Shown one piece after another: positions 5,003-61,837 of a stretch of 64,000 nucleotides of DNA. Both the position numbers and the translations under genes were made by a program. The DNA comes from Cyanodermella asteris. Taxonomy: Eukaryota > Ascomycota > Lecanoromycetes > Ostropales > Stictidaceae. Numbering within the stretch: the first letter of the stretch is position 1; every line of letters starts with the position of its first letter. The notes under the pieces are model-generated. The model ran no database searches, was not told the origin of the DNA, and saw only the letters and a program-made list of their open reading frames with translations. The stretch is taken from positions 772,980-836,979 of the forward strand of contig UYJD01000010.1 in NCBI GenBank assembly GCA_900618795.1, given 5' to 3'.

Positions 5003-6052
5003 TCAAGATTCATCATCCGAGGACTCATCATCGTTATCACTCTGTTCGTCCTCCACGCCACACCATCGACGATACTCAATGCGATCTTGACCTTCCCATG
5101 CCGGAAATTTGTTGAAGTCTTTCGACGGTGGCTTCGGATCGTTGATGGCCCGTTTGATGAAATGGATCTGACACTCCGGATCGCCACAGTTGACATCTTT
5201 GCCACCGGATCGGGGATTGTTCTCCGTAATGAGTCTATGTTCGTGGAAATAGAGCTGGTGTTACTTCCAGCCCCAGAAAGCGTCAAGGAAATGCTGATAG
5301 TCATTGCGGAAATCCGCCTTGAATATAAGTCCAGTCTCAGCCTCAAGATCCGCGATGATTCGCTTTAATTCATCACGTTCATTCATGATCGCGCCGACCC
5401 CGCAGTACTTTCACCACGATCAATGCCACGAAGAACAAAAATTGGAGTGGCGACTTTGCGCCGCACTCTGTGTTGACTGCTGCCCGGTAGCCGGCGATCA
5501 GCAATCGTTCACCAACACCAACGCCCTTGGCCAAGTCGCAGCGATCCCAGAGAAAGGCATACAATTCCCTTTCGAGGCGATGAAATTTGATGCGGCGGGC
5601 GAAGAATAGCAAGTCGATATATTCGGCGATGTTATCCGGGGTGACGTTCGTCGACACGCCGCGCATAGGCCATTTCTTGAACATTTTCAACGTCTGCGCT
5701 CTCAGCTCAGGATAGTTGAACACAACATCTCTGAGATCGTGTGTTGCGTGAAGGCTCCGATGTCCATGCGCGGTGCAATGGCAAGATGAGCCTGCTTCGA
5801 ATGAGGGGAATTTGGATCGCATTATCGAAACTCGTCGTCCAACAGACCCGGTCCGGGGCGCCCTCCGGGCGGCTCACTAGGACCAAAATGGGGGCCCTGT
5901 TGTCCTTCTGGGTGACACATGAAACGCCTGTCGATGCCTTCCGGGTGGCTTTCCCCGGCAGTTGAGAACGTAAGTTCGCGATCGTTGTTGAAGTTCCTGC
6001 ACGCGTCAATTTTCCGCTCAAATTGCAGCTTTGAATGTGGATCTGGAGGCAC
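5003..6052 (-). pseudogene. Decayed minus-strand gene, possibly BTB-related
   Basis: Coding-like stretches occur in different minus frames. One (5379-5822) contains AEYIDLLFFARRIKFHRLE and ELYAFLWDRCD, reminiscent of the helical part after a BTB fold. It then shifts frame near 5380-5400 to MNERDELKRIIADLEAETG and continues FRNDYQHFLDAFWGWK. A TAA (5262-5264) interrupts, after which the same frame resumes with LYFHEHRLI and ends in an acidic tail (EDEQSDNDDESSDDES) at 5003. The TAA fits CAA changed to TAA. The 5' part (5822-6052, Gly/Pro-rich) is in yet another frame, and no clean introns join the parts. Family assignment is weak; the evidence that it once coded is better. Confidence 0.45.
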
Positions 6053-7328
6053 TTACTTCATTCTGAGTTCACGATTGTCATGCCCACGGCGGATGTCACG
6101 GCGGATGTCTAGTGCATGCAGCATTGTGTCTGGACGTGTTCTAGGAAAAGGGCCAAGAGGATTGATGCTTCTTATGAGTAGCAGTGGGAAGACAGATGAC
6201 TTTCAAGGGAATATGGAGACCAAGTGCGTCGTACCGTTTGTATCGTAATCGCTTTGACTGATGGAGCAATCTTTTACAGCCATGCAGGAGTGAGGATATG
6301 AACATCAAAACAAATCGCTCATCATGTGCGCATCTGCCATGTCCACGTTTCTTGGCCGTTGCATGGGGACCCCTCGGCAAGCGCTCAGGTTCGGCAAAGC
6401 GTGGCTGTTGCGTCGATCTCTTTTGTATTGCTTTTAAATTTTGCAAACTTGTCATGTACTCAAGTGGGTACTCATATGATTTCAACTGCCAAAGCCCTCA
6501 TCAATCAGGACGCGGAGGTTCCTAGGCCAGTTGGACCAGTGGTTCAGTCGGTTGAAGATCAGTTGTCATCCTGGTTGATATCATTTTTTTTCCTTCGTGT
6601 TGTCTGGGAGGTCGCGCGTTCGATACCAGCTGCGCCTGTTACTTTTCGCCCTTTTTTGTGATTTGACTCTTGCGATTGCTATGCGAGTGGCGGGCCGCTC
6701 CAGCAGAGGTGAAGTGAACAAGCTGGACCATTTCGGTCTAGTAGCAGCATCAGGCGCTCTGCACACGACAGTTATAGCAGTCTTGGGGTTTGAATGTCCA
6801 CGCTGACCGCAATGCACAATTTGGTCCAAGTCCATCTCCTGGAGCTGATATCACGAGAGTTGTCCTGCGGTACTTTGTTGAGTTCTTTGATGCCCTTTCA
6901 TGGTCCTCTTGGATGCGCCGAAGCTGCTTGAATGAGCCCTTCTTCTTTTCACGGTCGCCTGGGCACACTCAATAGGGTGTTCGAGATGGAAGCTTGCTCA
7001 GGAGCTCGACGGATCAGCGCCATTGGCCAAGTTGCATTTCGGCTACGGTACTCTTTCTGGGTCATACAATTCTGCCCGGTGGCACTCTACGTGAGATGCC
7101 TGCGCTTGGATATCCTTAGGAGAAGATAGTATGTCAATGACTGCAAAATCGATGATGCAAGGATAAATTCGACAAAGACGCTTTCTGCGAACCTCAGCTT
7201 TGGTATAAACCAGATCCGGGTCAGCGGGGCCTCTTTCGCACCTGCCGCCAGCCTTTCCACCTCTAATATCATTGTTGTCGGCCCGCAAAAGCTGACATGA
7301 TTTTTGGCGTGCGGTTGAATCAGCCACA
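6053..7328. other. Intergenic, no supported gene
   Basis: About 1.3 kb without a convincing gene. Around 6535-6640 there are sequences like RNA polymerase III A and B boxes (TGGTTCAGTCGG and GCGTTCGATACC), but the arms do not fold as a tRNA and a T8 run lies between them. Confidence 0.4.
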
Positions 7329-8591
7329 TCAATGCGCGGAAACTCCAGTCCAATTACGCAGCGGGAAATCAAAGTCGTCATAATCCTGCTCCTCCTTCAA
7401 AGCGCCCGAATCCTCAAGCTCCTTTCCGATACTGTTCGTCATCTCCTCCACCATCTCATACACGACCCGGAGTCCCAACGGCATGTCTTTTCTCACTCTA
7501 GCCAAAGGCTTTCGATGGTTATCTTGTCTCAAGAGATCTGCTAATTCAGACGCTCGGCCATCCTATGTCAGATAATCGCGACAAAGTCCCTCGCGATCCG
7601 GTGTCAAAATCTGCTTCCACTCCCACATTCCGCACGCAACGTTGTCGAAGACGACATGTGTAAACATATTTCGAAGCTTGTTGTCTTGGATGTACTTGTT
7701 CTGAAGGACAGCGCCGTGGGCAGCGAGGAGACGGAACCACCCATTGTGTGGTCCGTCGACATCTGCGCAGTCCCAAAGCAACCTGCAAACCATCCCCGCG
7801 TAACTGTAACGATTTCATAAAAAAAAGAGGACGATGTGTAGATGCTGATAGGAACCGATACTCATGAGATGTGAGGATGCAATGATGCTCTCTTTGTCAA
7901 ATCACTGGTGGAAGTGCTCTGCGAGCTCCGATTTTCTTCCTCATTCTCTATCTTTCACAGCTCCTCAGTCTCAATGCCTTTGGCCAAATCTTGACGAGAC
8001 CTTCATCGGTCCTATAGCCCTCTGTCTGGAACAGGGAGGCATTAAGCTCTTCGGACCGTAATTGCTGGCCACTTGTCGCTTGTCGCAAAAGTCGATACGA
8101 CCGACTGTAATGTCCGAAGGGAGTAGCCAAGGAGCGAGTTCCGAGCGACTGCTCAGTCGCCACAACACAACCACGATGCGCGAATACAAGAACTGCTGCA
8201 GCCATAAAATTCAATCGTCCGTTCCTCGGCCTCCCTCCGACTGTCTTCGGGCAGTGGTGATTGGCAAGATCGCGCCCTCGGAGATCGTGGGCGAGTATTG
8301 TGGTCAGCGTGGATCCGGTTTGTTGCGGTCCCTTCGCCGTTATCGGATTCGCTGCGACTTGGTGTTGCCTGGTTGTCCATGATGGGGCCGACTCCGAACA
8401 AGGTTGCAGCTGCTGAGAAGGTCTACGGACCGCAGGTACTGATGTCGACAGTTGGGCTTGCCCTTGAGGCAGTCGATGCAGAGACCGCCGTTCGTCTTCA
8501 TCTGCCTGTGCAGATCGGTCATTCTCTGCTTCAGATCCGTTCTCGCTTTTCTACAAGCGGGACACGGTGCTGGCACAATCGTTGGAACCAA
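7329..8591 (-). pseudogene. Decayed minus-strand gene of unknown function
   Basis: The clearest part is one minus frame at 7329-7793. It reads NKYIQDNKLRNMFTHVVFDN and GMWEWKQILTPDREGLCRDY, reaches a TAG (7563-7565), and continues in the same frame through LADLLRQDNHRKPLARVRKD and VVYEMVEEMTNSIGKELED to a stop at 7329. The unbroken character on both sides suggests CAG or TGG changed to TAG. Upstream coding-like pieces lie in other frames: RTDLKQRMTDLHRQMKTNGG with a Cys-rich CIDCLKGKPNC motif near 8400-8591, and SEELNASLFQTEGYR near 8000. I do not recognise the family. It could be a relative of the decayed gene at 5-6 kb or of the BTB-like genes at 20-27 kb. Confidence 0.4.
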
Positions 8592-8939: not shown

Positions 8940-9980
8940 TCAAACCCTCGCTTCGTCCTTCATATCATCCGGCAGTTTGCCAATCACGCTCTCAAACAAC
9001 TTCGGCACCAACACGCTCGCATCACCCTGAAAGAACCAACCCCCATCCGCCAACCCACCCCCATCATCAGTCCGATCCGTGTTGAAGATCGCAACCCTCG
9101 CGCCCTCCGTCCTCGCAATGCCCACGTACGCCGCCGCAGGAAAGACTTTCGCACTGGTCCCGATGACAATCATCAGATCAATCGGACGGCCATCTGAGAT
9201 GAACTTGTCGACGCTCGACAACTCCTTTTCGGGCAGAGCTTCTCCGAACTATACCACGCCGGGACGGAGGAGGTTGCGTTTACAAGTCGGACACAGCGGG
9301 AGCTGGGAGGGGGTCACGGCTGGGAGGGGTACGGCTGAGTTTGAGATGTCGGCTTCTTTTGCCGCGAGGGTGGTTTTGGAGTAGCGGACTGCGTCCATTA
9401 GGGAGGAGGTCGCGTTGCCTATGGAGGGCCCGGGTTGCGGGCCTTCGGTTGGAACGGCGAGGGCTGGGACGATGGGATCGGTATAGTTATTATGTTCGAG
9501 GTGTTTGCAGCCGAAGCCGGAGCATTTGATGTCGAAAAGGGAGCCGTGGAGAAGGAGAAGTTGGTCTTCGGGGTGGCCTGCTCGGGGACTTAGGCCGTCG
9601 ACGTTTTGGGAGAGGGTGAGGAATTCGGGTTTCTTCTTTGCTAGTTCGGCGAGGGCGAAGTGAGCGGGATTTGGCTTTGCGTTCAGGGCCATGTGTCTGC
9701 AGGACGGTCAATGCGGATCTCGAAGATTGAGACGAAACATAGGGTTCATATACCTTCTGTAGCTGTAGAATTGCCAGACTAGCCCAGGATCAGCTTCAAA
9801 GGCTTCTGGCGTCGCCAAAGAGACCGCTTCCTGGTCCCGCCATAGTCCGCCCGCTCCTCTGAACGTCGGCAGACCAGACGCCGCAGAAAGCCCTGCACCA
9901 AGCAGAGCTAGGATTCTCTGGCTCTTGACAAGGTGTTGCTGGAAGTCCTTGAGCTCTTCTTGGGGGATTTGGTCGGCCAT
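8940..9980 (-). pseudogene. SIRT5-type sirtuin (NAD-dependent protein deacylase), interrupted by a stop
   Basis: Two exons on the minus strand (9980-9754 and 9696-8940; intron 57 nt) make a 327-codon frame with one internal TAG. Class III sirtuin features are present: LLGAGLSAASGLPTFRG (NAD site), FYSYRR (the YxxR acyl-lysine pocket of SIRT5-like enzymes, completed across the splice), TLSQNVDGLSPRAG, LHGSLFDIKC with GCKH and LCPTCKR (zinc cysteines), and VIGTSAKVFPAA. The invariant VVWFGE motif reads VV-stop-FGE: the Trp codon TGG is TAG at 9249-9251. The remaining 102 codons are open and conserved. A truncated product would lack part of the Rossmann fold, so it is probably inactive unless the stop is read through or is an error. 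Confidence 0.88.
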
Positions 9981-14435: not shown

Positions 14436-14901
14436 GCTAGACATGCAACTTTGCGTGATGCAACGTTAGCAACCCTGCAAAGCATTCTTATGCATTTCTA
14501 GTCCCGCTTTTTGCGCACAGGCATCGTTCTGTGTCGCGGAATGCATTTCGGAGCGCTGTTTTCTTTCCTTTGTTCAGACGCATCATGAGGATACGATCTG
14601 GTCAAAACAAACCATGCCTGGGCACATACGCGTGCCTCGTAAGAGCATGCTGGACAACTATGCAAAACATGCCTGGGTACATACGCGTTCCACGTAAGAG
14701 CATGTTCTTCGGTTTGAGTTAAAGGAATACCAACCTGTTCGGCGGGTCTTTACTATATAGTATAATGCCTAGTCAATGCCAAAACATTTGAAAACAACCC
14801 CAAATTGCATGCTATGTGATTGTAACAGACACGAGGCTGAATTGTCATGATGGGTCCTTGGAGATTGTATTCTGCAGACGTGTCGTGCACGATATAGCTG
14901 A
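14436..14901. other. PEPCK 3' flank
   Basis: Non-coding by inspection. It carries one 37-bp direct repeat, described separately, and AT-rich sequence around 14740-14830. Confidence 0.5.
14613..14704. repeat. Direct repeat, two 37-bp copies
   Basis: Copies at 14613-14649 and 14668-14704, 55 bases apart start to start. Both begin CATGCCTGGG and end GTAAGAGCATG. They differ at a few positions around the central ACATACGCG. There is no coding potential; it resembles a local duplication in the 3' flank. Confidence 0.75.
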
Positions 14902-15260
14902 GAGTATCGCTGACAGTACCTAGCTGAGTGCTTATCCCACCACCCAGTTCAGTACGCGGGCAAGTCCCGGACTAGGTACCCAGTCAAGTACCCAGTCAAG
15001 TACCTAATCTAGTACCTAGTTTAGTACCGGGTGAGGTACTAACACAAGTACTTGGTCAAGTACACAGCTGGTTACCTGGTCATATACATAGCGAAGTAGT
15101 CAGCAAAGCCCCCGGCGGAGTGTTCTACCGAGTGCCTCGCGAAGTACTTGTGCGGGTACCTTCCTAGGGACCTAGCAGAACACATAGCAGCTAATCGCCA
15201 GCCAGGTACATGATAGTATCGCTGAGAGTATAGACAAGAGTAGTACGAAGAGATTTGTTC
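14902..15260. repeat. Degenerate 12-bp minisatellite
   Basis: Roughly 25-30 head-to-tail units of 12 bp, best preserved near 14974-15100, with consensus AAGTACCCAGTC. The phase holds across almost the whole tract, and units diverge towards both ends. A second unit type (GTATCGCTGAGA-like) follows at about 15215-15260, and weak 12-bp periodicity continues towards 15340. Read in one forward frame the units encode Val-Pro-x-x tetrapeptides (VPSQVPSQVPNLVPSLVPGE), but the frame has stops at its edges and no start codon, so I treat it as non-coding. Confidence 0.8.
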
Positions 15261-15699
15261 TGATGCTGGAAGAAAATAGCGCGGAGAGTGTCGAAAAAGA
15301 TACTTTAAAGAGCGCCGTAAGAGGAAGTGATACCACCAGAAGCAAGTCTTGAGGACATTAGCTAGGCTCGTTAGCGATAGCTACCAAGTAGCACCGCTGG
15401 AAGTATCTACTAAGCTTAGTACTTTCACTGGGACTGTTTCGCTTTTGTTAGTGGCGTGCACGGTCCGTCTGCGAACCCGAAACTCTCGTCCCACAGCGCG
15501 TCAGCCCAGATCCGGAAACGAAACAGACAGCCGCAACCACCGTCCGCCATGTCCCGCAGCAATTGCAAGAATGTCCAAATGACTGAGCTGCAGCTGCAGT
15601 GTTGCTTTCTCCGAACACCTGGGCAGATCCGTGACCCTCGCTGGCCCAAATGCATCGATTTGAATCCGGCTCATTTTTCACAATCTCCGCCTCCGCGCC
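15261..15699. other. Spacer and PAN2 5' flank
   Basis: The left half still shows faint 12-bp periodicity. The right half, from about 15450, is GC-richer and probably holds the PAN2 promoter and 5' UTR. No separate gene is supported. Confidence 0.4.
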
Positions 15700-19259: not shown

Positions 19260-19761
19260 GCAATTGAATGACTTTGAAGTTCTTGGTGTGTTCTCCTTTC
19301 TGTCTGTCTGTTCATGTTGCTCATTCGGAGATACATCTGCGACTAAGATGTGCACGCGTGACTTGCGGTCGAGTGCTCTGGCATGAATTTCTTGCACTGA
19401 ACTGAAACTGAAGACGACGTCGAAGAAGGCTCGGCCTGCATGCTTGTTCGATGCCCAGTCTAGGAGCACGTGCTCTGCTGGCGCTCAATCCACGGCAGGT
19501 GAGCGCAGTGTGAGCGTCATCCGAATCGCCATCACTTTTATAACAATTCATTGAGCCAGGTCCATGTCAGAGCGCCCACGAAGGCGGACCGATGCTACCT
19601 TCATGACAAGCTTGCCACAGACATTTCATGGGCTGAATCTTCATCTTCGGTACAGTCCGATCCTGTCAAGACACTCTCCATCACCCAGGTCCGCCGCATT
19701 TCTGGTCTGATGTGCTAAAGTGAATTCTCACATCGATCCAAAACTGTTGGGAGTGACGGAT
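19260..19761. other. Intergenic between PAN2 and the first BTB-like gene
   Basis: PAN2 3' flank followed by the presumed promoter of the next gene. An upstream exon of that gene could lie here, because its relative at 21.6 kb has a separate first exon, but I could not fix one. Confidence 0.35.
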
Positions 19762-21018
19762 ATGGAACGCCAACGGAAGCTTCGGCAAAAGCCACGCGCA
19801 AGGCTTCTTAGCTTTCTTTTCGGATTATCAGACGTTAATTATCAAGTTGACGTCCTGAACGAGTCAGACTTGGCCCGTGTTCGAGCTCAATGGCCTGGCG
19901 GGATTGGTTTTGTTCGTATGGGTTGTCGAGGTTTGCACTGCAGACCAGGAAGACCTTACAGAATGGAGGCGGGAAAGAGGGTTTTCCTCCAGGTTCGACC
20001 AAAAATCACGCCTGCGCCACAGAGCACAGCTGGAGAGTCGCCGCCTGGATGCAATGGCTACGTACCTGAGAGCTGGATTGAAGCTGACCCCGAGCCTCAC
20101 ATCGATCCAGAAGCCGCATACGTGCCGGAACCGGAAGAATCGTCCGAGGATGAGAGCGGCTCAGAAGAGGAGGATGGTGAGCCGAAGGAGTGGCGCTTCT
20201 GCAGCCCATGGCCTCATGCCTTTGACGGCAAAAGCATTCTGAAGCCAGAACAGAAGATGGCTGGCTGGAAGTCTGCACAAGTGACGTTTGTGGCTGGCCA
20301 CGAGAAGAAGAGGTCCACCATTCCCGAATCGTGGCTTCGGGCGGTCGGCTACTTCCAGGATCCGTTCACCTTGCACGCAGCCTCCGTATCTACTGGGACC
20401 GTTCGCCTTCGCGACTATTATAGCAAGGCTATCAAGGATTTCTCGACATGGATTGCCCGTGGGTTTGACGGTCTTGGTGACGTGGAACACTGCCGTGTGA
20501 CACCTAGTCAGAGATGCCTAACCGATCTCGTACTTCTTACCAGGAAGTGGGACATCCATCTTCTCAAGGAGCAGTGCTACCACCGCATCGTCGAGCGATG
20601 TTGGCATAACGTGCAAGAACCCATCAACACGAAGACCATCATTCAATTCTACCGGTCGTTTCAGTTGGGCCGGGAACGCTATCTGCCGATGCATGCTGTC
20701 GTCACCGCTACCCGCGATCCAGATCATCAGCAATCCGTGAAGAAATGCCTGGAATCTTGGGTGGGGAAACGCGATGACTTTTGGTCGGATTATGATAGTT
20801 ACAAATACGTTCATGGGCTTGTCACCAACTGCTCAGTCATGGATGAACTCGAGGGCGAAGAGTTCAGTGCAGAGGACCAGTCGCATGATCTCATCCGACT
20901 GGTCTTGGCTGGAAAGGAGGATCAGGTCAGGATTCCGCGAGCTCAGTTTGTGGCTGGTGGCAGTACTCCGAGGCTTCAGGACACCGGCCTTTGGATTCGC
21001 AGAGCTCTCGATTTGTGA
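19762..21018 (+). CDS. BTB-like protein, copy 1 of a tandem family
   Basis: A single-exon frame of 418 residues from the first in-frame ATG. The N-terminal ~200 residues are poorly conserved, with an acidic run (EESSEDESGSEEEDGE) and a WRFCSPWPHAFDG motif shared with copy 2 (WQLCSPWANAAHG). The C-terminal half is the family core: a divergent BTB fold (VTFVAGHEKKR... WIARGFDG), LTRKWDIHLLKEQCYHRI, RYLPMHAVVTATRDPD and a Trp-rich FWSDYDSYKYVHGL block. Such proteins often act in protein interaction, some as Cullin-3 adaptors, but no partner is suggested here. The true start may lie in an upstream exon. It appears intact. Confidence 0.65.
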   Translation: MERQRKLRQKPRARLLSFLFGLSDVNYQVDVLNESDLARVRAQWPGGIGFVRMGCRGLHCRPGRPYRMEAGKRVFLQVRPKITPAPQSTAGESPPGCNGYVPESWIEADPEPHIDPEAAYVPEPEESSEDESGSEEEDGEPKEWRFCSPWPHAFDGKSILKPEQKMAGWKSAQVTFVAGHEKKRSTIPESWLRAVGYFQDPFTLHAASVSTGTVRLRDYYSKAIKDFSTWIARGFDGLGDVEHCRVTPSQRCLTDLVLLTRKWDIHLLKEQCYHRIVERCWHNVQEPINTKTIIQFYRSFQLGRERYLPMHAVVTATRDPDHQQSVKKCLESWVGKRDDFWSDYDSYKYVHGLVTNCSVMDELEGEEFSAEDQSHDLIRLVLAGKEDQVRIPRAQFVAGGSTPRLQDTGLWIRRALDL

Positions 21019-21617
21019 CTCGGGATCAGAAGCAAGGAGTGTGAAGTGAAACGACAGGGACTCATCTGGACGACTACTCTGCGATTTCATCTAGGGAAAG
21101 CTTAAAAGCGGAATCGAAATTTGCTGATCGGATCAGATCGAAGAACACATTTCAAGGACGATTGGTCTTTCAGCTGTTTGAGAATGCAAGAGAAAATGAT
21201 TGATGCTTGCTGAGGGATCTGGACAAGGCGATTTGACTACGTGAGGGCTCCTCTGAAATGTTAAAAGGGGCCTAGGTTGCCACAGGTCGGTCTACGATTG
21301 AGAAATAATTTGACAGAAGAGTTCAGACACATGATGACTTATCCGAATAGATATCAGTTTGTGGTTCTGACTTGGTCGTAGCTTGACAAGCGGCTACCCG
21401 ATTACCGAGAAGTGGTGAGGACAAGTGAGCGTCCGATGAAATAGTCAATGTCCCCAGCCTCTGCTCAATGCCGCGGCCTTCATTGTTGACGCGGCAACCC
21501 GTCTCGTCCCCTAATTTGCTGCCCGCCAGAGCTTCTCACATTTCACCTTTCACCAACTGCGAGGCATCTGACCTTCGCCACCCGGATTCACGAATTCTTC
21601 CCTCGCGAGAGCCCAGC
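21019..21617. other. Intergenic between BTB-like copies 1 and 2
   Basis: AT-richer than the flanking genes and without a supported gene. It presumably holds the promoter of copy 2. Confidence 0.4.
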
Positions 21618-22962
21618 ATGGTCTCGTTCAAGGATCTGGCCTCTCGTCAGACGCCAGGCATCCAACCCAAGAGCTCCAAGCCAGCCCCAGCTCGCTACGT
21701 GCCACCAAACCTCCGCCGAATTCACGGGCCCAACGCGTTTGATGAATTCAGCAATGTCCCAGAGAAGACTGAGTCTGTTGCTTCCAAGGTCTGATGTTCC
21801 CTTTTGCATACCACAGGCACAAACACTGACGACTCATGTACAGAACGCTGATGCGGATTTGTGGTGCGCTGACTGGGGTCACCCTCGTGCTGCTGGAGCG
21901 TTCTCTGAATGTGACAACAACTCTGGTTATTCTCGTTCACCTGAGCACGTGAACACGCCTGAAACTTCGGACTGTCACAAATCTGGTACAGACCTGGCCG
22001 TTGCCTCTGACGCCGACGTGGTCGGAGATGATCCATTTGAGGGTCCCTCAAGCTCGTGCGAAAAGAACCTGCAAGGCTTGCAGCTCCACTGGCAGCTTTG
22101 CTCCCCTTGGGCGAACGCGGCTCATGGATCATCTCCTCTCACCCAGGAAAAGCTGACCGAGGGCTGGCACTCGAAGAAGATGAGGCTGTTGAGCGAAAGC
22201 TGCGGCACCACTGACATCCCGCTGGCAAGGCTGAATGACCTTGGTTGTTTCGAGGAAAGCCTCGGTAAATCGGAAGGTTGGTCCCGAGACTTCATTATTG
22301 AAATCGACCACAAGCGTCCCTACATGAAATCAACTATCGTCACCTTCTTGAACTGGCTGGTGCGCGGCTTTCAACCAAGTGACGGCGGTATCCTCTGGTG
22401 GAAAGACTTGGCCCCATTGGTCACCATCGAGCTCCTACATCTAGCTGAGACCTAGAATGTGAAGCAGCTCGCCGATCAGTGCTACCACCGACTGTTCATG
22501 TTCTGCACGAAAACTTGGATGGAGCACTGTTCCTCCGAGAACATTCTCACTCTGTACTTCCACTACAAGAATAGTGCCATTCGCTTCCTGCCGATCCACG
22601 TCGCGGTCCTTTGCGCCAAGGACCGCCGTTTCCAGCATGCCTTGGTACCGGACCTTCTGTTGCGGACCGACGACAAATTGTTTTGGACTGACTACGCCAA
22701 TTACAAGATGATTTTCGAGCTGTACACCAACGACACTCCGGATGACAATCCCGAAACGATTGAGCAGGATAAGAAACTCAGTTCGAATAACCTTATCCGC
22801 GCCATCGTTTCTGGAAACCCGAACCATCTGTGGTTGCCGCGCTCAGTCCCACCATCACCAGTCTTTGGACCTCTTTCGGCGAAGCAACCTATCCGAAAGT
22901 TGATCAGCCGCCTGCTGGACATTGAGCATACAGCCAAAGCCGCGACCGATCTCGATTGGTAG
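21618..22962 (+). pseudogene. BTB-like protein, copy 2, with a stop at a conserved Trp
   Basis: Exon 1 (21618-21788, MVSFKDLASRQTPG) and exon 2 (21844-22962) make a 429-position frame, close to copy 1 in length. The donor GTCTGA is weak; the acceptor is TACAG. The frame is interrupted only by TAG at 22453-22455. Aligning LAET-stop-NVKQLADQCYHRL with copy 1 (LTRKWDIHLLKEQCYHRI) puts the stop at a Trp that is also present in copies 3 (GDRW) and 4 (GDKW). The cause is therefore most simply TGG to TAG. The region after the stop keeps the family blocks (RFLPIHVAVLCAKDRR, FWTDYANYKMIFEL), arguing for a recent lesion. Confidence 0.75.
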
Positions 22963-24686
22963 GAATGGCTTGTCTATGGCTGCGTCGGAGGCGCGGTGAC
23001 TGTGACGTTTCACAAAGTGTAAGCAGAAACTGCGCGGTTCAGAAGAGCCCTTTACAGCCCTGTCAGGAGCAAGCTTGTCTATCAGAGGCAAGTCTTCATC
23101 TTTGAAGAATTGAGCATAGACGTTTTACCAAGGAAACTTGAATGAAGCTATGATGATGCACCATATTGTAGCTCTCGACCGGATCTAAACAAGTCTGTTC
23201 ATCAATAGCGGAGCTCAATGACTTTGACAAGTGCGAGGCTTGATATCAACATTATGTATTTTGCCCGCTTGATCTCTCTTGGTGGGATACTTGGAACCGC
23301 CGGCGATGAAATCAATCTCAAATACGCATCCAATGTTCTCGAAGGCTCGACGACTCTCGGGGGTGGTTGCTGAGGCCCTCACTGGGATACCCACTGAGGT
23401 CGCTCGCCAAGTGACCGCTCAGCAAGGGGCGTTCTGGTTGACTTGATTCGAGGCTAGAGTAGGCAGACTTGCAAGCTTCTGGAAGTATGAGAAGCGCATT
23501 TGAAATTGAAATTGTCCTTGTCGCTTGTGTTTTCAAGGCCTTCCTATCTCATGCACCTGGAACGAGTGAGCGGCGCGCTGTGGCAGATATGCGGAAAGCT
23601 TGGGCGCCAGCCTCCAAACTGAGAGACATCAATTTACTGGCCAGTGTGTCAGAGTATCTTTGATTTGCTGTTGCGTTGCATTGGATTGTCTACCCTCCCG
23701 GCTTATATGACCGAACGACGGCAGCTTCTGGGTGAAACCGTGCAATCAGGGGACCCAGTGCCAAAGCTCGTGAGCTGCAACAACCCAAAAGAACACTAGC
23801 TCTGGCATCCGGTAGCGTTATTTGAGATTGATTGAGCTCTCCGCAAGAGACTGTGCAGAATGGGAGGCATGAACCAAAGCGTCTAGGGATGTGCTTTGAG
23901 GTCACGCGCGGAGGATTCTTTGTTCAGGCCTTGTCGACAGTTCAAATCGCCTGATACACGTGTACTTTGCCGGTTATGCTCTTTATACGCTGACAGTACA
24001 GCATGCGTGATCTTGTCAGAACAGATCCGGGCAGCTCGGAAGATGAGGCCGAGATTCGAGTTCACCTACATATTGCCCGATTTGGCAGGAACCGGCTTCG
24101 CAGGTCCACTGCCGGTCCACGTCCATGCTACCGCATTACCAGAGAAGCAACACTGGGTGACAAGTTCCTAGCACCTACACGGTCTGAAGGTCCGGCTGTT
24201 GTGTGTGATTTGTGCATGCTCACATTCCCGTGCGCTCCGTCTTGATCAAGCAGCTTGCAAATTTCCATTGAGCCTGCTCCATTTTCGCGTGCCGTCATGC
24301 GACGCTTGTGTCGGATGAAGTTTGCTTATCTGCGCTTAATTTATCAATAAATGCCGCCCAAACGGCATTTCCAGCCATCTCACTCAGCAACTTGCTTTGC
24401 TAACCTGAACGTACATTGGCTCCGGCATTGGCGATACAAAGATCACATCTCTATATCGCACAACTCGAGTTCTGTGCTCAGAATCTGTAATCACTCGCGT
24501 TTTTGTGGAGGTCACAGATATGTCGTGAGCATTTCTGGATTCCGCGACATGCCACAGCTCGGCTGGTTGTGACATCAGAAGCAAATCTTTCATCATTCAC
24601 AACCCTTGGTGCTCGGCCCGTTCCAGACCAAAAATATTAGCTCCGTGCTTGAAGACAAGGCACTCCTGGCAGGTATACAGTCTACT
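22963..24686. other. Intergenic between BTB-like copies 2 and 3
   Basis: About 1.7 kb with only short frames and nothing recognisable. The right end is presumably the promoter of copy 3. An upstream exon of copy 3 is possible, because its frame stays open back to about 24606 without an ATG. Confidence 0.35.
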
Positions 24687-25463
24687 ATGATCACTTTGCT
24701 CGTCGGCCCAGACGAGAAGGCCATCCGAGCACCCAAAGACCACCTTTGTGCGATCGGCTATTTCAGGGGCGCCCTCGAATCTGGGTTCAAAGAGGGCGAG
24801 GAGAACGTTATTAGGCTGCCCGAGGACGACTTCACAGCGATTGAAGATGCCGTAATCTGGTTAACACGGGACCAGAAGTACTTGGAGTTCCGAGGATTGC
24901 GCATAAGTGGTGGCGCCCCCTGCGATGAACAATCGCTGGTACGAGGGGTGCAGTTGATGGCTCTGGGAGACAGGTGGCGTTGCATTCCCCTAATACACTA
25001 CGGGTGCCGGTTCTTCTGGAGCAATGCTGTGTCCGAAGGGGACGTTGATCTCGTCAAGCACATGGTTGACAGTTGGAAAGCTCTCAAGCCGATCAGGACC
25101 AGATTTGTGCCAATCCATTTTTTACTATTGGCGATGAAATTCGATGAGGATTTTGAAGGGGGTCCCGACGACATATCAGGCTCACTTTGGTGCACACGCG
25201 ATCCGGACTTCTGGAGTGACTTCAGCATGCACAAACTCATCCTTGACGCCATCTGGAACGACTGGCCACCGGAGCAGGAGGAGGCTGAACGACTCGAAAC
25301 CTCTCGGAATCTGATGAGAGCAGTGGTGCAGGGAAGTATGAAGATCGAGGATCATCCGTTTCTATTGGACATGGTAAATGTGGAGCGAAGTACAGTGGAA
25401 GAGGCGAGCAAGTGGCTGAACAACATATACAGCTCAACTCATCTTGAGGAGTGCGGACTCTGA
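24687..25463 (+). CDS. BTB-like protein, copy 3
   Basis: 258 residues from the first in-frame ATG. This copy has the clearest BTB character: MITLLVGPDEKAIRAPKDHL, GYFRGALESGFKEGEE (the usual fungal 'SPFFRAAL...F.E' block), then VIRLPEDDFTAIEDAVIWLT. The family C-terminal half follows: LMALGDRWRCIPL, RFVPIHFLLLAMKFDED, FWSDFSMHKLILDA and NLMRAVVQGSM. It lacks the long variable N-terminus of copies 1 and 2. It is in the same orientation as the other copies, consistent with tandem duplication and divergence. It appears intact, though an upstream exon cannot be excluded. Confidence 0.7.
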   Translation: MITLLVGPDEKAIRAPKDHLCAIGYFRGALESGFKEGEENVIRLPEDDFTAIEDAVIWLTRDQKYLEFRGLRISGGAPCDEQSLVRGVQLMALGDRWRCIPLIHYGCRFFWSNAVSEGDVDLVKHMVDSWKALKPIRTRFVPIHFLLLAMKFDEDFEGGPDDISGSLWCTRDPDFWSDFSMHKLILDAIWNDWPPEQEEAERLETSRNLMRAVVQGSMKIEDHPFLLDMVNVERSTVEEASKWLNNIYSSTHLEECGL

Positions 25464-26110
25464 CGTCGTAAGACGGAGGACCCCAACAATGATTGTTCAG
25501 AAATGAACTTGCTTCTCAGCTCAGAAAGCTTGTAGATTGCGACTTTAGATTTCTGTCATTCGCGGAACAAAGTCAATAGTTCTCCTATGGAATCTGCGTC
25601 TCCAAACATGAAGGTTACGACTGTGAACCAGTCAGTTGTAGCAGGTAAGGAGGTTGCAGGGAAGCCCCTGCCGGTCCGTGATCCGTCCCAAAGTGCATCT
25701 AGAAACGCCGACAGACACTTGTCGCAATGTTGATGTCGACATTCACCGACTTACTGAGCTTGGTGATTGGCTGGATGCTTGTCTGACCGAAAGCTTGCAG
25801 CGAAAAGGTTGTGAAAAACGGCGCGAGAAATCAGTCAACTCATTTGCACTTCGCTTTCCGCAGTAAGGGGTCCGCTCACTTTTAGCAAGCGACGGTCCAG
25901 GGATCTCACGCACTTCACCTCTCCACCCTGTCAGTATCGGACATCCCGCAGCCACTTTGTCCGTCAATTGACACCAATCACGTGATCATCGTGATCAGCA
26001 ATTGATCCTGTCATATCCCGGAGTTGTGAACGTCTGGAGTTCGCGTCCAGGTCAGCTCCAATCCTGAATCGATGAAGACATTTCGAATTTGAGACCTTTC
26101 AGCGCTTATC
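25464..26110. other. Intergenic between BTB-like copies 3 and 4
   Basis: No gene supported. The palindromic tract CACGTGATCATCGTGATCA at about 25979-25997 is noticeable but its role is unknown. Confidence 0.4.
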
Positions 26111-40008: not shown

Positions 40009-41640
40009 ATGAAGTTCTTGACACTTGTGCCCCTCTTCGTGGCTGGCGGCGCCTTTGCTCATGAGATATATGGCGTGGAGCGTCAAGTTGGAAGTAAGAT
40101 GAGACGCCTACCGAATGTTGCATCCAATCATTACGAAGTCAACGCCAAGGTAGATCTCTGCTAACTTGAAGTAGGCGCTATCAAGCCGCGCTGCGACAAC
40201 CATACTGAGTCAGCCCTTCGTGGCACTGGGACCGCTTCAATCTCACGACCAACCTCCAGTGTCCCTTTTCCTGCTTCCAACAGAACTACTGCAGCTGGCA
40301 CGGCAGCAAGCACGGGTCGATCCCTGACTCTCAGCTCTTCCTCCGCTACGTTTCAAAACATCTCCCCCGCGGCCGGGGCTCACAGACCGACATCTCATCA
40401 TGCGGGAGCTGGCACTGCTCCGGTTGACACTGGCAGGTTTCCTCCGCCTCCAGAGTACACCACCCATGCTGTTGGCAATACCACGTCTTCAAGCAGAGTC
40501 CCTCGACCCCTTTCGACTGGCAGTAGTGTTGCGGGCACAGGAACTGCCCATCCGGTATCTACTGCGGGAAGCTCAGGCTCATTTTCAAATTCTTCTACCG
40601 CCGCTGCTACAGCAGGATATTCGTCTTTTCGACTGTCTACCGGAGCGACGGGAACAGAGACAGGATTTCCCTCGTCTTCGCTCGCAACTTCAGCACCGTT
40701 CCTGAATGCCACGACTGCTGGTGAAGTTAGTAGTATTCTCTCAACAACTGGTGGGACCGCAGCAAGTATCGTGTCCCAAATCTCGTCTTCAGCAGGCTCT
40801 ACATCTCCATTCTTCAACTCGACGACCGCCGGCGTAGGAAGCACTGCCAAACACCTTTCTACCAGAAGCGCCGGAACTGCACCGTTGGGAACGGGCGTCA
40901 CGGCGAGCTCAGAAGCAGCAGCACGAGGTCAGACGTCTACAGCACTCAAGAGCACAACTTCTTCGCAGGTAACTTTATTCTCAGCGCCTTGGTACGGACC
41001 AACTGCTAGCTCCGCTGTCCCGATAACCACAGTCCATCCGACTCAGACCCTAGATAGCACAGTCTTCATTGCGCCGCCTACTTCTCAAGTGCCGCTGAGC
41101 ACCGGTCCGGTCATCTCCTCTGGTGCCGACCCTCTCTCCCAGTCCTCGCTTCCTTCAAGCAATTCCACCTCGCCAGCAACACCGACCACAAGCAGCACTG
41201 TCTCGAGCTCCGACCCCCAAACACCCACCCATCGAATTTCGAACACAAAGTCCCCCATTATACTCCAAACCACCTTGGCAGGAAGCAAAAGCAGCCCGAC
41301 CCCAAACCAAAGCTCCCGGCGACCAAAGTCGGCTCCAGGTACCACTAGCCTGAGCGTGAGTACAAACGCGAGCGTAACCAGCAGTGCAAACACGAACACA
41401 AATCTGCTGACAACAGCCTCGGCGAACGCCTCGAAGGCGGGATCCTTGAGCACGTCAGTCCTTTCTGCAACTTCAAGTTCTTCTACCGATGAGCCGAGCT
41501 CGACGATAGTATTTCCGACTTACCCGCCTCCGCCCCCCTATCCGACCTCGCTCGTGCGTAGGGACGCCGTCGTCGACTCGTCCCTCCCCTACCATGACCC
41601 CGTGAGTAACCATTTTGCCAAAGTCTTTCCGTTGCATTAA
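40009..41640 (+). CDS. Secreted Ser/Thr-rich protein with a dibasic C-terminal cleavage motif
   Basis: Exon 1 (40009-40093) and exon 2 (40175-41640) give 516 residues. The N-terminus is a clear signal peptide (MKFLTLVPLFVAGGAFA). The rest is overwhelmingly Ser, Thr, Ala, Gly and Pro, without exact repeats, so heavy O-mannosylation and a cell-wall or extracellular place are likely. There is no hydrophobic C-terminus, so a GPI anchor is not supported. Near the end a Pro-rich run (PTYPPPPPYP) is followed by SLVRRDAVVDSSLPYHDP; the RR pair could be a Kex2 site releasing a short C-terminal peptide. It converges on the small coiled-coil gene, whose stop is 68 bp away. I do not recognise a family. 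Confidence 0.7.
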
Positions 41641-42578: not shown

Positions 42579-44080
42579 TACAATTTCGTCTGCTTCTCCT
42601 TGGCCCCATGATTAATAGCCGCCTCCTTCACTGCCCACTCCGTCAAGTACAACGGCATCTCCGTCTCAAACAAGAAAATACTAGCCCCCTTCATCCATAA
42701 CCTTCCTCGGCGTCAAATCTTGCGTGCTGGCCCTCTCCAACTCCTCCTCCCCCACCCCATGCGTCTTTCATCGGCCCATTCATCCCCGCCACAAACAGCG
42801 CAAAAGTCCCCACCTCGTTCAGCGGAAACGCGGGGTCTTGCGAGTTGATAATCGGCCCATAAAACTCCTTCGTGGTGTTGCGGTGATGGTACGGAATCCA
42901 CAACGTGCCTTCGGAGACGTTTCCAAGCGCGGAGGCACGATCGGCAAAGTCCACGACCGCGCGCAGCCCGGGTTCGCGGTGCGATGGGACCGTGAGGACG
43001 ACGTACAAGCTGGGGTCGTGCTCGTCGAGGAGCGTGTTGCCCATGACGCAGAAGCGGCCGAGGTCGTATTTGTAGGGGGATGATTTGTGCCATGCCAGGG
43101 CCGCGACGTGGAAGGGCGTGTGATTCTGGGTGCAGCGCCAGAGCCGTCCGCTCTGACTACTGAACAGGGTCCATGTCGAGTTGTTGTTGGCGACGGGGCT
43201 GCCGTCTAGGAGGCTCCCGTCGAAGGACGCAGTTGGGATCTGGAAGTCGCGGACGTTGGCTAGGCCCGTGGACCCGATGGCGCCCAGTTCCGGGAGCTGG
43301 AAGTGGCCCCTGGTAGATTTCGCAGATGTCGCCGCGAGTTGGACCGGCAGGGAGGGTTATGTGGTAGCGGATGCCGCGGGGGATGACGGCGAATTCGTTC
43401 TGGCGGACCATGAGGTGGCCGAGTTCGGTTTGGTTGTCGAGGGCGCCGGCTTGGGGGAGGATCAGCTGGTCGCCGTCGAGGGATGAGAAGGCCGTGTTCT
43501 CGTCCATGCTTTCGGTGATGTCGAAGAGCCATGTTGGTAGCCCGGTTTTGGTCATTGGATCGCCGTTTTTTGCAAGTAGCCTGTGGGAGAGCCAGTTGCG
43601 GTTGGGCCGTTTTGATAGCTTCGGCCGCACTTTGCTTGGTGAGTCTTATCGAGGAGTGTGATACTTGATTTTCGGTTGTAAGATGCTCGGATGCACTTAC
43701 TGTATGAATTCGGAGTGTGTAGGTCTTGGCTTCCTCGGCATATTCACTCTAGGGTTCCAAAGTGATCTGCTCAAAGGAAGCAGTCGTACGGTACATCCAT
43801 GTCTGGTAATTGAGGTGTGTTGGAGCTGTGAACGAGCTTCCTGAAATCCTTTTGGTAACCTGCCCAAGCGGAGGCCTCTTTGGACTGTTGTTGGATATGG
43901 AATTGGCACCTGCAAGAGCTTCTGAGCTATAGTGAGACTCAGTATCTTGAACCAAGGCAGCCTTGGCATGACAATATGATGAGACGAGCTCACCTATGAT
44001 AAGAACCAAGACCCTCGAGGTACTTGTACGGGCCTTCGACCTGAAAGTCGTTCTTTGCTACAGCGATGATTGCACAGTAC
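42579..44080 (-). pseudogene. Homogentisate 1,2-dioxygenase-like gene, multiply broken
   Basis: Minus-strand pieces follow the HGD fold from end to end. The N-terminus has FQVEGPYKYLEGLGSYH, an intron, then SEALAGANSISNNSPKRPP and GSSFTAPTHLNYQTWMYR. A TAG (43749-43751) splits EP-stop-SEYAEEAKTYTLRIHT. After a second intron come TAFSSLDGDQLILPQAG and EFAVIPRGIRYHI; a +1 shift at a G4 run near 43308 precedes FQLPELGAIGSTGLANVRDF. SPYKYDLGRFCVMGNTLLDE and YHHRNTTKEFYG follow (His and Glu iron ligands kept). Two more +1 shifts lie in G5 runs near 42754 and 42690, before IFLFETEMPLYLTEWAVKEA. The third ligand region HGPD reads NGPM. No upstream start was found. Family HGDs cleave homogentisate in Tyr/Phe catabolism; this divergent copy may have had another role. 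Confidence 0.75.
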
Positions 44081-44632: not shown

Positions 44633-45301
44633 ATGCCGACCATTCTCCCAACTCAGATCCTGACGTTTCAGGTCGCCAAAGCGCCCAAGTTGGTCGACCC
44701 AGAGTCTGAAGAAAGTCGTCTGTGGCAAGATGCTCTCAAAATCATCGAGAGGTCGAAGGGCGTCGAGCAAATTCGATGGGGCCTCGGTGTCGAGCGTTAT
44801 TGGGAAGCCTCGATGCACGTCGTGAGAAAGTCTTATGCCGATCATCAGGAATATCTTACGAGCAACGCACACTCAGAAGTAGTCGACATTCTCTCCGGTG
44901 TGAGCCACAGACCTCCCACGGTATGACACGTTGAGATGCAGCTCTTCACAGAAGACAAGTCGCCATTCAAAGCTCCGGTGACTGGTACGGCCATCTACCT
45001 GGAATGCAAACCAGGTTTGTGGGATGCAGCTTGGAACCTATGGACGCACATCATGCCAGATATAAACGGCTGTCATGGTCTTGCTGGCGGTTACGTCCAG
45101 GAAGACGTCGAGAGCAAGAGCTCTGGCTTCCTAGTCTATGTCGGATGGGAATCAACCTTGAAGCATGATCACTTTCACCATACCAGCTTCTTCGAGTCAT
45201 ATCGAGTCATTTTGACCACCGGAAACACAGGTTGGGCCGAATATGGCCATGTCCATTTTCTCGAGGACAAAGTGGTAAAACACGATCAATCGAAAATGTG
45301 A
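44633..45301 (+). pseudogene. Two-domain dimeric alpha/beta-barrel protein with an internal stop
   Basis: The ATG at 44633 opens MPTILPTQILTFQVAKAP. The frame runs to 45301 (222 positions) with a single TGA at 44924-44926. Both halves look like ABM or stress-responsive alpha/beta-barrel repeats: half one has GVEQIRWGLGVERYWEAS and SYADHQEYLTSNAH; half two has GCHGLAGGYVQEDVE, FLVYVGWES and HFHHTSFFESYR. The break reads RPPTV-stop-HVEMQLFTED, most simply CGA (Arg) to TGA. Such proteins act in polyketide cyclisation, ring cleavage or stress; none can be chosen here. TGA followed by C is a relatively leaky context, so low-level read-through is possible. Confidence 0.65.
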
Positions 45302-45829
45302 AACCCATCGCCGTTGACATTAATTACACCAAAGCAACGGCGGGTGGGCAAAACTCATAGCGTAAGTACTACAGCTTCTACGTCCTCTGCTATATACGGA
45401 TCTACCTTCAGAGATAGTAGCTTAGGTATCTATGGAAACTGACGCTTGTGTACTTTGTGCGGCATCATAATGAGTCGGTATATAAGTCGTTGAACAAGGA
45501 CCTAGGGCTGAAAGCCGCTGCCTGTATCCTTCGTAATCAAATTGTCACGCTTGGTCGCATGACAACGACGATTTTTCCTGCGAAACAACTCCCTGCCCAA
45601 CTTCAAGTCGATTCTAGACACATACAGAGCTCTGGACCAATGCTCTGATTGCATTAATGCTTGATATCTGGTGCGATAATATTGGTGCATGAAATTCCTC
45701 CGTACGCTGCTGACGTGCCTGTCACATGTCACCCCGCATTTGACTTGCTTCCCTGAATTGTCCTATCTGCTCTCTAAGCACCCAAGTCTTTTGCTCAATG
45801 TTCAAACTCACGAATCTTGATCGGATGTC
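45302..45829. other. Intergenic, no supported gene
   Basis: Short frames only. The last bases before the beta-trefoil gene include a two-codon upstream ORF. Confidence 0.4.
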
Positions 45830-57551: not shown

Positions 57552-57630
57552 GGGCTCATTGTTCGCAACCATGCGCCTGTAGACGAGAAGGCGAATGAAC
57601 ATGTTCATAATCTCTCAACAGAATCGATCA

Positions 57631-59448: not shown

Positions 59449-59961
59449 GGTCGTCAAAATGAGCGTGTGAAATGAAGGACTGGTAGGACAGAAGCTCAGT
59501 CAGATTCGGATATGACGGGTGAACGCAAAAGCGTGCCAAGCTAGCACCGAGATTTCTGCTCGAGCTGCGGAAAGTCAGTGCATTACCGATCAACTTTGGC
59601 ACGAATATGCGTGGTAGAGAGGCCACAGCCCGGATACATAGTATTTACTTTCAGATACTTGTAGCATATAGGTGGCTGGCTTTTCGATGCGCGTCACACT
59701 AGCTACGCCTATGCCTACGTGTTGTAGAGTCGCCCCAATCCCAGGACCCACAACGAGCCCATGTGGCCTACACGCTAGAATGGCGAATTTTAATGTTAGT
59801 CCAAACTTGGACTCTACTCTTATTAGATACATCCGAGGTTCTTCCCGCGTCTCAGCCATGGGAGAACTTAGTACAGGAGGAACCGCTTCTGAATTTGGTA
59901 TTATCGTATTAGTCTACTCTATTAAAGATATTTATCTATTTACTATATTAGATACTAAGCT
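59449..59961. other. Intergenic grading into AT-rich DNA before the gap
   Basis: No gene supported. From about 59885 the sequence is almost purely A/T with many TA steps (for example TATTTATCTATTTACTATAT), the look of a RIP-mutated repeat. The element itself is not visible because of the gap. Confidence 0.5.
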
Positions 59962-60199
59962 NNNNNNNNNNNNNNNNNNNNNNNNNNNNNNNNNNNNNNN
60001 NNNNNNNNNNNNNNNNNNNNNNNNNNNNNNNNNNNNNNNNNNNNNNNNNNNNNNNNNNNNNNNNNNNNNNNNNNNNNNNNNNNNNNNNNNNNNNNNNNNN
60101 NNNNNNNNNNNNNNNNNNNNNNNNNNNNNNNNNNNNNNNNNNNNNNNNNNNNNNNNNNNNNNNNNNNNNNNNNNNNNNNNNNNNNNNNNNNNNNNNNNN
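59962..60199. other. Assembly gap (238 N)
   Basis: 238 undetermined bases. Any frame reading across it is meaningless. The true length may differ. Confidence 0.99.
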
Positions 60200-61057
60200 A
60201 CCTAAATTAGGTGAGGCGCCGCCGTTTAATGACTTGGGCAAAGAAAAAAGTCAGTGATCACACAGCTACAGTAACTGTTGGAGACTGAAGTAGTCAATCG
60301 TCAGCCTTACATCCGCTATAAGGTGAGGGCACTATTTCGAAGGGAAAAGAAAGCGTGTCACGGATCGGGGGGTCTGAACAGCCGCGGCAAGCGGCGGGTC
60401 GTGTCCGCGCAAGGCGGGTGGACAGAAGTCGTGGCGCACGTACGGGTAAGAACACCTCTGAACGTCCTTGTTTCACGACTTGCGAACCGACTCGCGATAG
60501 TACCTTTTAAAAAGACGCGAGCATCAATTTCTACAGGTACTTATATTACTATCCCTGAAGGCAGAGGTATATGTGATGGAGCAAGTAGAAGCTGTAGTAC
60601 TAACGCCACGACATCTGCCCACCCGCCTTGCGCGCCGGATCGAGGGTGTTTGTTTGAGCCAGCATTATTATTATCTTGTCGGCGTCGTCGAGGCCAGCCA
60701 GTCGGAGATGGTGTAGGAGAAACCTGTTGGTATGCAAAGCTTATGCGATGCAATATTGTATGGGCCTAATTCTTGAGGCCTCCCGGCCAGGCGCTTATGG
60801 CCCACAGCATGCAGGCATTTATTATTTCCCTCAGCCCTCGAAAGACGATCCGGATGAAGCGGCGTCTGGAGGGGCGATCAACAGGGTGAGCTGGCAAAAT
60901 GATTGGGGTACTCGTGCTCCGCCTGTACGAGAGAGCATTCGTCAGTCTATAAGAACATGCGTTTCCCAGCCCTCTCCAACAGCAGTCCCTCAAGCCCCAT
61001 CACGCACGCTCACATCTCTTCTTTTCCTTCCCCGTCCCAACGACATTCCAACCTAAC
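60200..61057. other. Repeat-like region between the gap and the hydrolase
   Basis: No gene supported. It contains the inverted-repeat element at 60406-60634. The last ~150 bases are pyrimidine-rich and are likely the hydrolase 5' region. Confidence 0.45.
60406..60634. mobile_element. MITE-like element with 31-bp terminal inverted repeats
   Basis: The left arm (60406-60436, starting CGCGCAAGGCGGGTGG) and the right arm (60604-60634) are inverted copies matching at 29 of 31 bases. They bound a 167-bp AT-richer core without coding capacity. The total of 229 bp suits a non-autonomous DNA transposon (MITE). I found no clear target-site duplication, so the family is not assigned, and a simple inverted duplication remains possible. 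Confidence 0.5.
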
Positions 61058-61837
61058 ATGTCCCCCAAGCCCGATATTGTGCTGGTCCACGGCGGCTGGC
61101 ACACGCCCGCCAGCTACGCCAAACTCACAAAGGCCCTGGAGACCGAGGGCTTCAAGGTGCACATCCCAGCCATGCCCACCATGAGCGGCAAGCGACCCCC
61201 GACGGCAGACCTCTATACCGATACGGACTTTATCCGCGACTACGTGTCAAAGCTGTCCGACCAGGGCACCCGGTCCATTGCCGTTATGCACTCGTACGGC
61301 GGCCAGGTCGGGACCAACGCGCTGCTGGGGCTGGGTACGAGCAAGCGCGCGAGCGAGGGCAAGGCCGGCGGCGTGCTCGAGCTCGTGTACATGGCCGGCT
61401 TCGCCATGACCGAGGGTACGTCCATGACCGGGTGGGTGGATTCACAGGGCCACAGCGACCTGATGCCGCTGGCGTTTGACTTTCAGGACGACGGGATCGT
61501 GCTGAGCCGCGACCCGAAGACGTTGGTGGTGGGCGCAGACCTGCTAAGCGCCGAGGAGATGGAGGCCTACCTCGCCACGTTTACGACGTGGGCGAGCAAG
61601 TCGTGGACGGATGAGCTGAAGCAGTCGGCCTGGCGCGAGATTCCCGTCACGTATATCCAGACGACGCAGGACATGACCGTCTTGCCGGACTACCAGGAGA
61701 AGTTTTAGGAGCTCATCCGTGCGGCAGGCACACCCTGCACCAAGGCTGTCATCGAGACAGGCCACTGTCCCAATGTCACAGCCACGGACAAGGTTGTAGA
61801 TGTGCTCAAGGATGTCGCAGCGAGAGCTACTGCTTGA
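61058..61837 (+). pseudogene. Alpha/beta hydrolase with an internal stop near the C-terminus
   Basis: A single-exon frame of 259 positions with one TAG at 61706-61708. The N-terminus DIVLVHGGWHTPASYAKLT has the oxyanion HGGW-type motif. MHSYGGQVG holds the nucleophile-elbow Ser, LVYMAGFAMTEGTSM follows, and after the stop VIETGHCPNVTATDKVVDVL supplies the catalytic His. The break reads YQEKF-stop-ELIRAAG, so CAG to TAG is simplest. Truncation would remove the His and inactivate the enzyme. These small fungal hydrolases resemble plant methyl-esterases; the substrate is unknown. Strong GC preference at third positions suggests recent function. Confidence 0.7.

What the first reader, a model, noticed from the sequence alone, without database searches (positions are those of the whole stretch)
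5003..61837. Seven accessory genes each carry an in-frame stop inside conserved or open coding sequence
In-frame stops interrupt otherwise continuous protein at 5262 (TAA), 7563 (TAG), 9249 (TAG, sirtuin), 22453 (TAG, BTB-like), 43749 (TAG, HGD-like), 44924 (TGA, barrel protein) and 61706 (TAG, hydrolase). Six fit C-to-T at CpA on one strand, the preferred context of fungal RIP; the seventh fits CGA to TGA. Housekeeping genes in the same 64 kb are clean. This suggests recent loss of accessory functions, possibly through RIP-like leakage into low-copy genes. CpA is forced for CAA/CAG nonsense changes, so only the TGG-to-TAG cases carry extra weight.
Basis: partly seen in the sequence, partly recalled or inferred. 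Interest (0 to 1): 0.75.

Follow-up and report, generated by a model that had tools for sequence, protein, structure and literature searches.

The report
Ordinary decaying accessory genes in fungus
In this stretch of fungal DNA, several non-essential genes carry stop signals that cut their proteins short, which most likely means they are recently or long-dead genes; nothing here shows that the fungal repeat-mutating defence (RIP) caused it.

Summary
All seven stop codons are in the sequence, but they are not one phenomenon. Four (sirtuin 9249, 'BTB-like' 22453, small protein 44924, alpha/beta hydrolase 61706) are single exonic stops in otherwise intact frames. 5261 and the HGD-like 43749 lie in genes that also change frame: older pseudogenes. 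7563 is ambiguous. The sirtuin and hydrolase stops remove conserved C-terminal segments, so those products should be null.

The RIP argument fails. Every TAA or TAG can be written as C-to-T at CpA, TGG-to-TAG included, so the context is forced; six or more of seven being TAA/TAG has P=0.24 under context-free C-to-T. RIP indices of broken and intact genes agree (mean composite -0.68 vs -0.69). No broken gene is repeated DNA in the window. Intact genes lie about as near RIP-like patches (4 of 9 within 300 bp) as broken ones (3 of 7 within 310 bp). TAG ends five intact conserved genes, so the code is standard. A-to-I stop correction is unlikely but not excluded. Best reading: ordinary pseudogenization of accessory genes; assembly error at single sites cannot be tested here.

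The parts
5006..5850 (-). unknown accessory gene; in-frame TAA at 5261-5263 plus a frame change near 5.42 kb
   Evidence: coding signal in one frame to about 5440 and in another from about 5410; no 42-140 nt intron joins them; no Pfam match
7332..7814 (-). unknown accessory gene fragment; in-frame TAG at 7563-7565, exonic status ambiguous
   Evidence: local coding signal +0.05 / -0.21; a 90-nt intron with poor donor would remove it; further upstream the frame breaks up
8940..9980 (-). SIRT5-like sirtuin, exons 9980-9754 and 9696-8940, single in-frame TAG at 9249-9251 (codon 225; final stop is codon 328)
   Evidence: SIR2 Pfam E 1.8e-21, SIRT5 structures E 1.5e-46; the 3 alignments shown, all SIRT5, have Trp at this column
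   Evidence: three related in-window frames have Trp at this column; no Pfam support for the name BTB in any of the four
42600..44057 (-). homogentisate 1,2-dioxygenase-like pseudogene, TAG at 43749-43751 and three or four frame changes
   Evidence: HgmA_N 4.2e-12; HGD structures E 1.5e-59 for pieces taken from several frames by eye; intron tests of two of the frame changes
44633..45301 (+). intronless gene, possible alpha-beta barrel protein, single in-frame TGA at 44924-44926 (codon 98; final stop is codon 223)
   Evidence: only a sub-threshold Dabb match (E 0.06, 14.5 bits against a cut-off of 25)
61058..61837 (+). alpha/beta hydrolase, intronless, single in-frame TAG at 61706-61708 (codon 217; final stop is codon 260)
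   Evidence: Abhydrolase_6 3.3e-22; 7 of 7 aligned bacterial relatives continue past the stop to a conserved His

Best explanation
A set of ordinary unitary pseudogenes among the dispensable genes of a filamentous ascomycete. Four genes carry a single nonsense change in an otherwise intact frame: recent null alleles, fixed or segregating in the sequenced isolate. Two others (5261, HGD-like) are older and also change frame. 7563 is undecided. Mechanism: independent nonsense and indel mutations that persist because loss of these genes is tolerated. Shown: the stops, the open frames on either side, and the loss of conserved C-terminal segments in the sirtuin and hydrolase. Inferred: that no functional product is made, that selection is relaxed, and that the changes are real in the organism.
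For: Gene models with one internal stop each and consensus introns where needed. Over 60 codons the stop's own frame is the best of six on both sides at 5 of 7 sites; at the sirtuin it is positive on both sides but an antisense frame scores slightly higher upstream (0.104 vs 0.076); at HGD it is nil. No plausible intron spans 5261, 22453, 43749, 44924 or 61706; the sirtuin candidates would delete sequence conserved in SIRT5. Conserved sequence lies downstream of the stop: sirtuin, hydrolase in 7 of 7 relatives. Frame changes in 5261 and HGD. Lesions in 0 of 7 conserved genes vs 7 of 13 others (Fisher P=0.044; single-stop genes alone 0 of 7 vs 4 of 10, P=0.10; gene classes and rounded lengths are mine, and genes I could not identify are left out).
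Against: No reads, transcripts, other isolates or outgroup could be examined, so single-stop sites could be assembly errors. The conserved-versus-accessory contrast is weak, defined after the fact, and counts the ambiguous 7563. Just upstream of 44924 the local coding signal is slightly negative. Four single-stop genes in 64 kb seems a lot for a healthy genome (my impression, not measured).
Confidence: 0.75

Rival explanations
1. Assembly or sequencing error: some single stops and the frame changes are base-call errors in a draft assembly.
For: The window has a 238-base N gap at 59962-60199, so it is a draft scaffold; one HGD frame change lies at a short G run.
Against: No unexplained lesion in about 13 kb of conserved coding sequence; P that all 4 single stops miss it by chance is 0.08, that all 7 do is 0.013 (rounded gene lengths). 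The stops are substitutions rather than indels.
Confidence: 0.13
2. RIP or RIP leakage from neighbouring repeats made the nonsense changes.
For: RIP leakage into single-copy genes is documented in other fungi (passages of PMC6152946, and PMC9453070). Nine RIP-like 300-nt patches were found; one touches the 44633 gene, one lies inside the sirtuin, one is 308 bp from the hydrolase. The highest 300-nt composite index of any gene tested is in the sirtuin (0.40). The two copies of the only dispersed repeat differ by 23 transitions and 10 transversions within the repeat (one search gave 28 and 23 because it took in flanks), so RIP may act on repeats here.
Against: Stop types carry no CpA information. 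Broken and intact genes have the same mean index. 4 of 9 intact genes lie within 300 bp of a patch, against 3 of 7 broken ones within 310 bp. The stop whose gene touches a patch (44924) is TGA, which is not a CpA type. The sirtuin peak rests on 11 TA against 9 AT, and an intact gene reaches 0.26. Only 11 of the 23 repeat transitions are CpA/TpG-compatible.
Confidence: 0.08
3. Premature stop correction by sexual-stage A-to-I mRNA editing: UAG read as UGG.
For: Five of seven stops are TAG. At two of the three TAGs where relatives could be aligned the column is Trp. In F. graminearum another 70 genes besides PUK1 need such editing (passages of PMC11156358).
Against: At the hydrolase TAG 7 of 7 bacterial relatives have Ala or Ser and the one structure matched has Ile. 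The TAA and TGA sites and the frame-changed genes are not explained. The A of the stop lies in a predicted hairpin loop at 3 of 7 sites (2 of the 5 TAGs) vs 259 of 600 control TAGs. Editing is reported in Sordariomycetes and one Pezizomycete and was not found in Aspergillus nidulans or Botrytis cinerea; the class of this fungus is unknown.
Confidence: 0.03
4. TAG (or every stop) is reassigned or routinely read through in this organism.
For: Five in-frame TAG codons.
Against: Fe-ADH, PAN2, aminopeptidase P, hexokinase and the ammonium transporter all end at TAG.
Confidence: 0.01

Closest known systems
Unitary pseudogenes of accessory genes in filamentous ascomycetes
   Same: Single nonsense changes or multiple lesions in dispensable genes while conserved genes stay intact
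   Different: Nothing that sets these apart, except possibly the density (six or seven in 64 kb), which could not be compared with the rest of the genome
RIP-leakage alleles (e.g. Leptosphaeria maculans avirulence genes, as told in passages of PMC6152946)
   Same: Nonsense changes in genes that are single-copy in the window; some lie near RIP-like patches
   Different: No RIP signature in the genes on average, no CpA information in the stops, frame changes present
Fusarium graminearum genes with UAG premature stops corrected by A-to-I editing (PUK1, AMD1; passages of PMC11156358)
   Same: Internal TAG, at a Trp column in two of three alignable cases
   Different: TAA and TGA sites, non-Trp column in the hydrolase, other lesions, no evidence of editing

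Membership tests
Pseudogene (unitary) | Disabling lesion inside conserved coding sequence | tested here: met
   Sirtuin and hydrolase by homology, 22453 gene by in-window relatives, HGD by homology and frame changes; 44924 and 5261 by coding signal only; 7563 ambiguous
Pseudogene (unitary) | No functional product, relaxed selection | not testable with these tools
   No transcripts, isolates or close relatives held; no genome held for the window
RIP or RIP leakage | Raised TpA/ApT and lowered (CpA+TpG)/(ApC+GpT) in the affected gene | tested here: not met
   Broken genes mean composite -0.68, intact -0.69; a single 300-nt peak of 0.40 in the sirtuin; per-gene values
RIP or RIP leakage | Target is repeated DNA, or flanks a RIPped repeat | tested here: inconclusive
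   No broken gene is itself a DNA repeat in the window; 3 of 7 lie within 310 bp of or over a RIP-like patch, as do 4 of 9 intact genes within 300 bp; copies elsewhere in the genome could not be sought
RIP or RIP leakage | C-to-T/CpA excess against unmutated relatives | not testable with these tools
   No close relative available; stop-codon types are uninformative
A-to-I premature stop correction | UAG stop at a position that is Trp in relatives | tested here: inconclusive
   Met at 9249 and 22453, not met at 61706; the other sites have no alignment or are not TAG
A-to-I premature stop correction | A/G mismatch in sexual-stage RNA | not testable with these tools
   No RNA data
Alternative genetic code | The codon no longer ends genes | tested here: not met
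   TAG ends five intact conserved genes

The most novel reading that the evidence does not exclude
At least the sirtuin and the 22453 gene are not dead: their TAG codons sit at Trp columns and are changed in mRNA to UGG by A-to-I editing in one life stage, so this region holds stage-conditional genes, possibly in a fungal class where such editing is not yet known.
Probability: 0.04. Interest if true: 0.65.

Novelty: new member of a known kind. Interest (0 to 1): 0.2.

Why it matters
It corrects a tempting inference: nonsense codons alone can never show RIP's CpA preference, because the context is built into the TAA and TAG codons. It also separates single-stop genes, where read and RNA checks are worthwhile, from genes already decayed. 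If the single stops prove real and segregate, they are useful markers of gene loss in this lineage.

Tried and rejected
Introns spanning the stops: none found for 5261, 22453, 43749, 44924 and 61706; candidates for 9249 rejected by homology; 7563 left open. Genetic-code change: rejected. An apparent eighth stop at 52336 is intronic. Stops at 41346 (another frame of a Ser/Thr-rich gene) and 56244 (antisense to the HET gene) judged spurious; 47589 left open. An apparent N-terminal truncation of the SDR gene at 37873 is explained by an upstream exon in 37015-37389 and a 498-nt candidate intron. Hairpin-loop test for editing: no signal. A genome-contig scan with the hydrolase gave one distant relative; a plasmid tblastn gave 69 records. 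Taxonomic placement: not achieved; PAN2 is only moderately similar to solved PAN2 chains. tRNA and Rfam searches were empty. A paper search for fungal pseudogene surveys returned 1 paper; broader ones were mostly off topic by their listings.

The repeat-pair counts raised my odds for RIP from 0.07 to 0.08; no other odds were changed.

Full report
What was checked. The window looks like a draft scaffold of a filamentous ascomycete (inferred from short GT-AG introns, PAN2, and the HET and fungal-rhodopsin domains; one N gap at 59962-60199). No genome is held for it and none of the collections offered is fungal, so there was no outgroup, no reads and no RNA.

The stops. All seven are present. A codon-usage score was trained on ten stretches of open frames with a Pfam match (4,794 codons; matches). 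Over 60 codons the stop's own frame is the best of six on both sides at five of seven sites. At the sirtuin it is positive on both sides, but an antisense frame scores slightly higher upstream. At the HGD-like site there is no signal. A search for introns that could remove each stop found the correct 51-nt intron for the control stop 52336. It found none for 5261, 22453, 43749, 44924 or 61706, and for 9249 only candidates that would delete conserved sequence. For 7563 it found a 90-nt candidate with a poor donor that ends at the TAG itself, where local coding signal is weak or negative. I therefore count 7563 as ambiguous.

Four clean single-stop genes. The sirtuin (minus strand, exons 9980-9754 and 9696-8940) is complete except for codon 225. 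Its best matches are SIRT5 structures (E 1.5e-46); the three alignments shown, all of SIRT5, have Trp at that column and continue with similar sequence after it. The gene at 21618-21788 and 21844-22962 has one stop at codon 261; the related frames at 19711, 24573 and 26093 all have Trp at that column. The gene at 44633-45301 has one stop at codon 98; its family is unknown, with only a sub-threshold Dabb match. The hydrolase at 61058-61837 has one stop at codon 217. All seven aligned bacterial relatives run on past it to a conserved His, and have Ala (6) or Ser (1) at the stop column. The one structure matched has Ile there. That this His is the catalytic one is recalled knowledge of the fold; on that basis the truncated hydrolase, and likewise the sirtuin without its C-terminal third, should be inactive (inference).

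Older wrecks. The 5261 gene changes frame near 5.42 kb and no intron of 42-140 nt joins the two frames. The HGD-like gene is recognisable against HGD structures only when pieces from several frames are put side by side. Three frame changes were read by eye. For the one tested, only weak intron candidates exist, the best of which would delete sequence conserved in HGD. A fourth, just after the stop, has a GTAAGT donor, but no frame-keeping YAG intron was found.

Conserved genes. In Fe-ADH and PEPCK the frame changes are met by introns of 69, 50 and 56 nt (the 69-nt one lacks a consensus branch site). The ammonium transporter has its 51-nt intron. PAN2, aminopeptidase P, hexokinase and the amine-oxidase-like gene are open over their Pfam domains.

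Is RIP shown? No. TAA arises by C-to-T from CAA, TAG from CAG or TGG, TGA from CGA or TGG. CAA, CAG and TGG-to-TAG all place the mutated C before an A, so six of the seven stops are CpA-compatible by construction, whatever caused them. With this fungus's codon use (CAA 50, CAG 105, TGG 89, CGA 39), context-free C-to-T gives 6 or more of 7 as TAA/TAG with P=0.24, and all single-base changes with equal weight P=0.55. The RIP composite index averages -0.68 in 165 windows of the 7 broken genes and -0.69 in 505 windows of 9 intact genes.

What speaks for RIP. RIP-like patches exist, among them 45271-45630, 59611-59970 and 60181-60750. Three of seven broken genes lie over or within 310 bp of one. 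The sirtuin holds the highest single 300-nt value (0.40). The only dispersed repeat pair differs by 23 transitions and 10 transversions. But four of nine intact genes also lie within 300 bp of a patch. The sirtuin value rests on 11 versus 9 dinucleotides, and an intact gene reaches 0.26. Only 11 of the 23 repeat transitions are CpA/TpG-compatible.

Other readings. TAG ends Fe-ADH, PAN2, aminopeptidase P, hexokinase and the ammonium transporter, so the code is standard. A-to-I editing of UAG is known from Sordariomycetes and Pyronema and was not found in Aspergillus nidulans and Botrytis cinerea, according to the passages seen of PMC11156358. Two Trp columns fit it. The hydrolase, the TAA and TGA sites and the loop test (3 of 7 sites in hairpins, 259 of 600 controls) do not help it. 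Assembly error cannot be excluded site by site. The absence of unexplained lesions in seven conserved genes makes it less likely as the general cause (P=0.08 for the four single stops, 0.013 for all seven, with gene lengths rounded by me).

Verdict. Several accessory genes are indeed interrupted; this is ordinary gene decay, partly recent, partly old. The RIP link is not supported by the genes themselves. RIP leakage is documented elsewhere (passages of PMC6152946 and PMC9453070), so it remains a possibility that only an outgroup can test.

Noticed in passing
45334-45456 and 60511-60631: Inverted pair of a short dispersed repeat, about 76% identical, in TA-rich surroundings, differing by 23 transitions and 10 transversions; one copy starts 33 bp after the end of the 44633 gene, the other lies near the N gap.
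   Followed up: partly
59700-60600: Sequence with RIP-like dinucleotide indices on both sides of the 238-base assembly gap; probably a degraded repeat.
   Followed up: partly
14600-15420: RIP-like index and many degenerate GTAC-containing short repeats between PEPCK and PAN2.
   Followed up: no
19711-26581: Cluster of four diverged related frames (22-37% protein identity, no Pfam family), one of them broken at 22453; the last (26093) ends early in a row of three stop codons, TGATGATGA, and may be broken too.
   Followed up: partly
37385-37882: A short-chain dehydrogenase gene seems to have a 498-nt intron (GTAAGT donor), far longer than the 50-69 nt introns measured nearby.
   Followed up: partly
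47589: Minus-strand TAG flanked by coding-like sequence on both sides; no gene identified, possibly spurious.
   Followed up: no
40009-41640: Long Ser/Thr-rich frame starting with a signal-like hydrophobic stretch, with an in-frame stop near 40.16 kb that I presume to be intronic: probable mucin-like secreted or surface protein.
   Followed up: no
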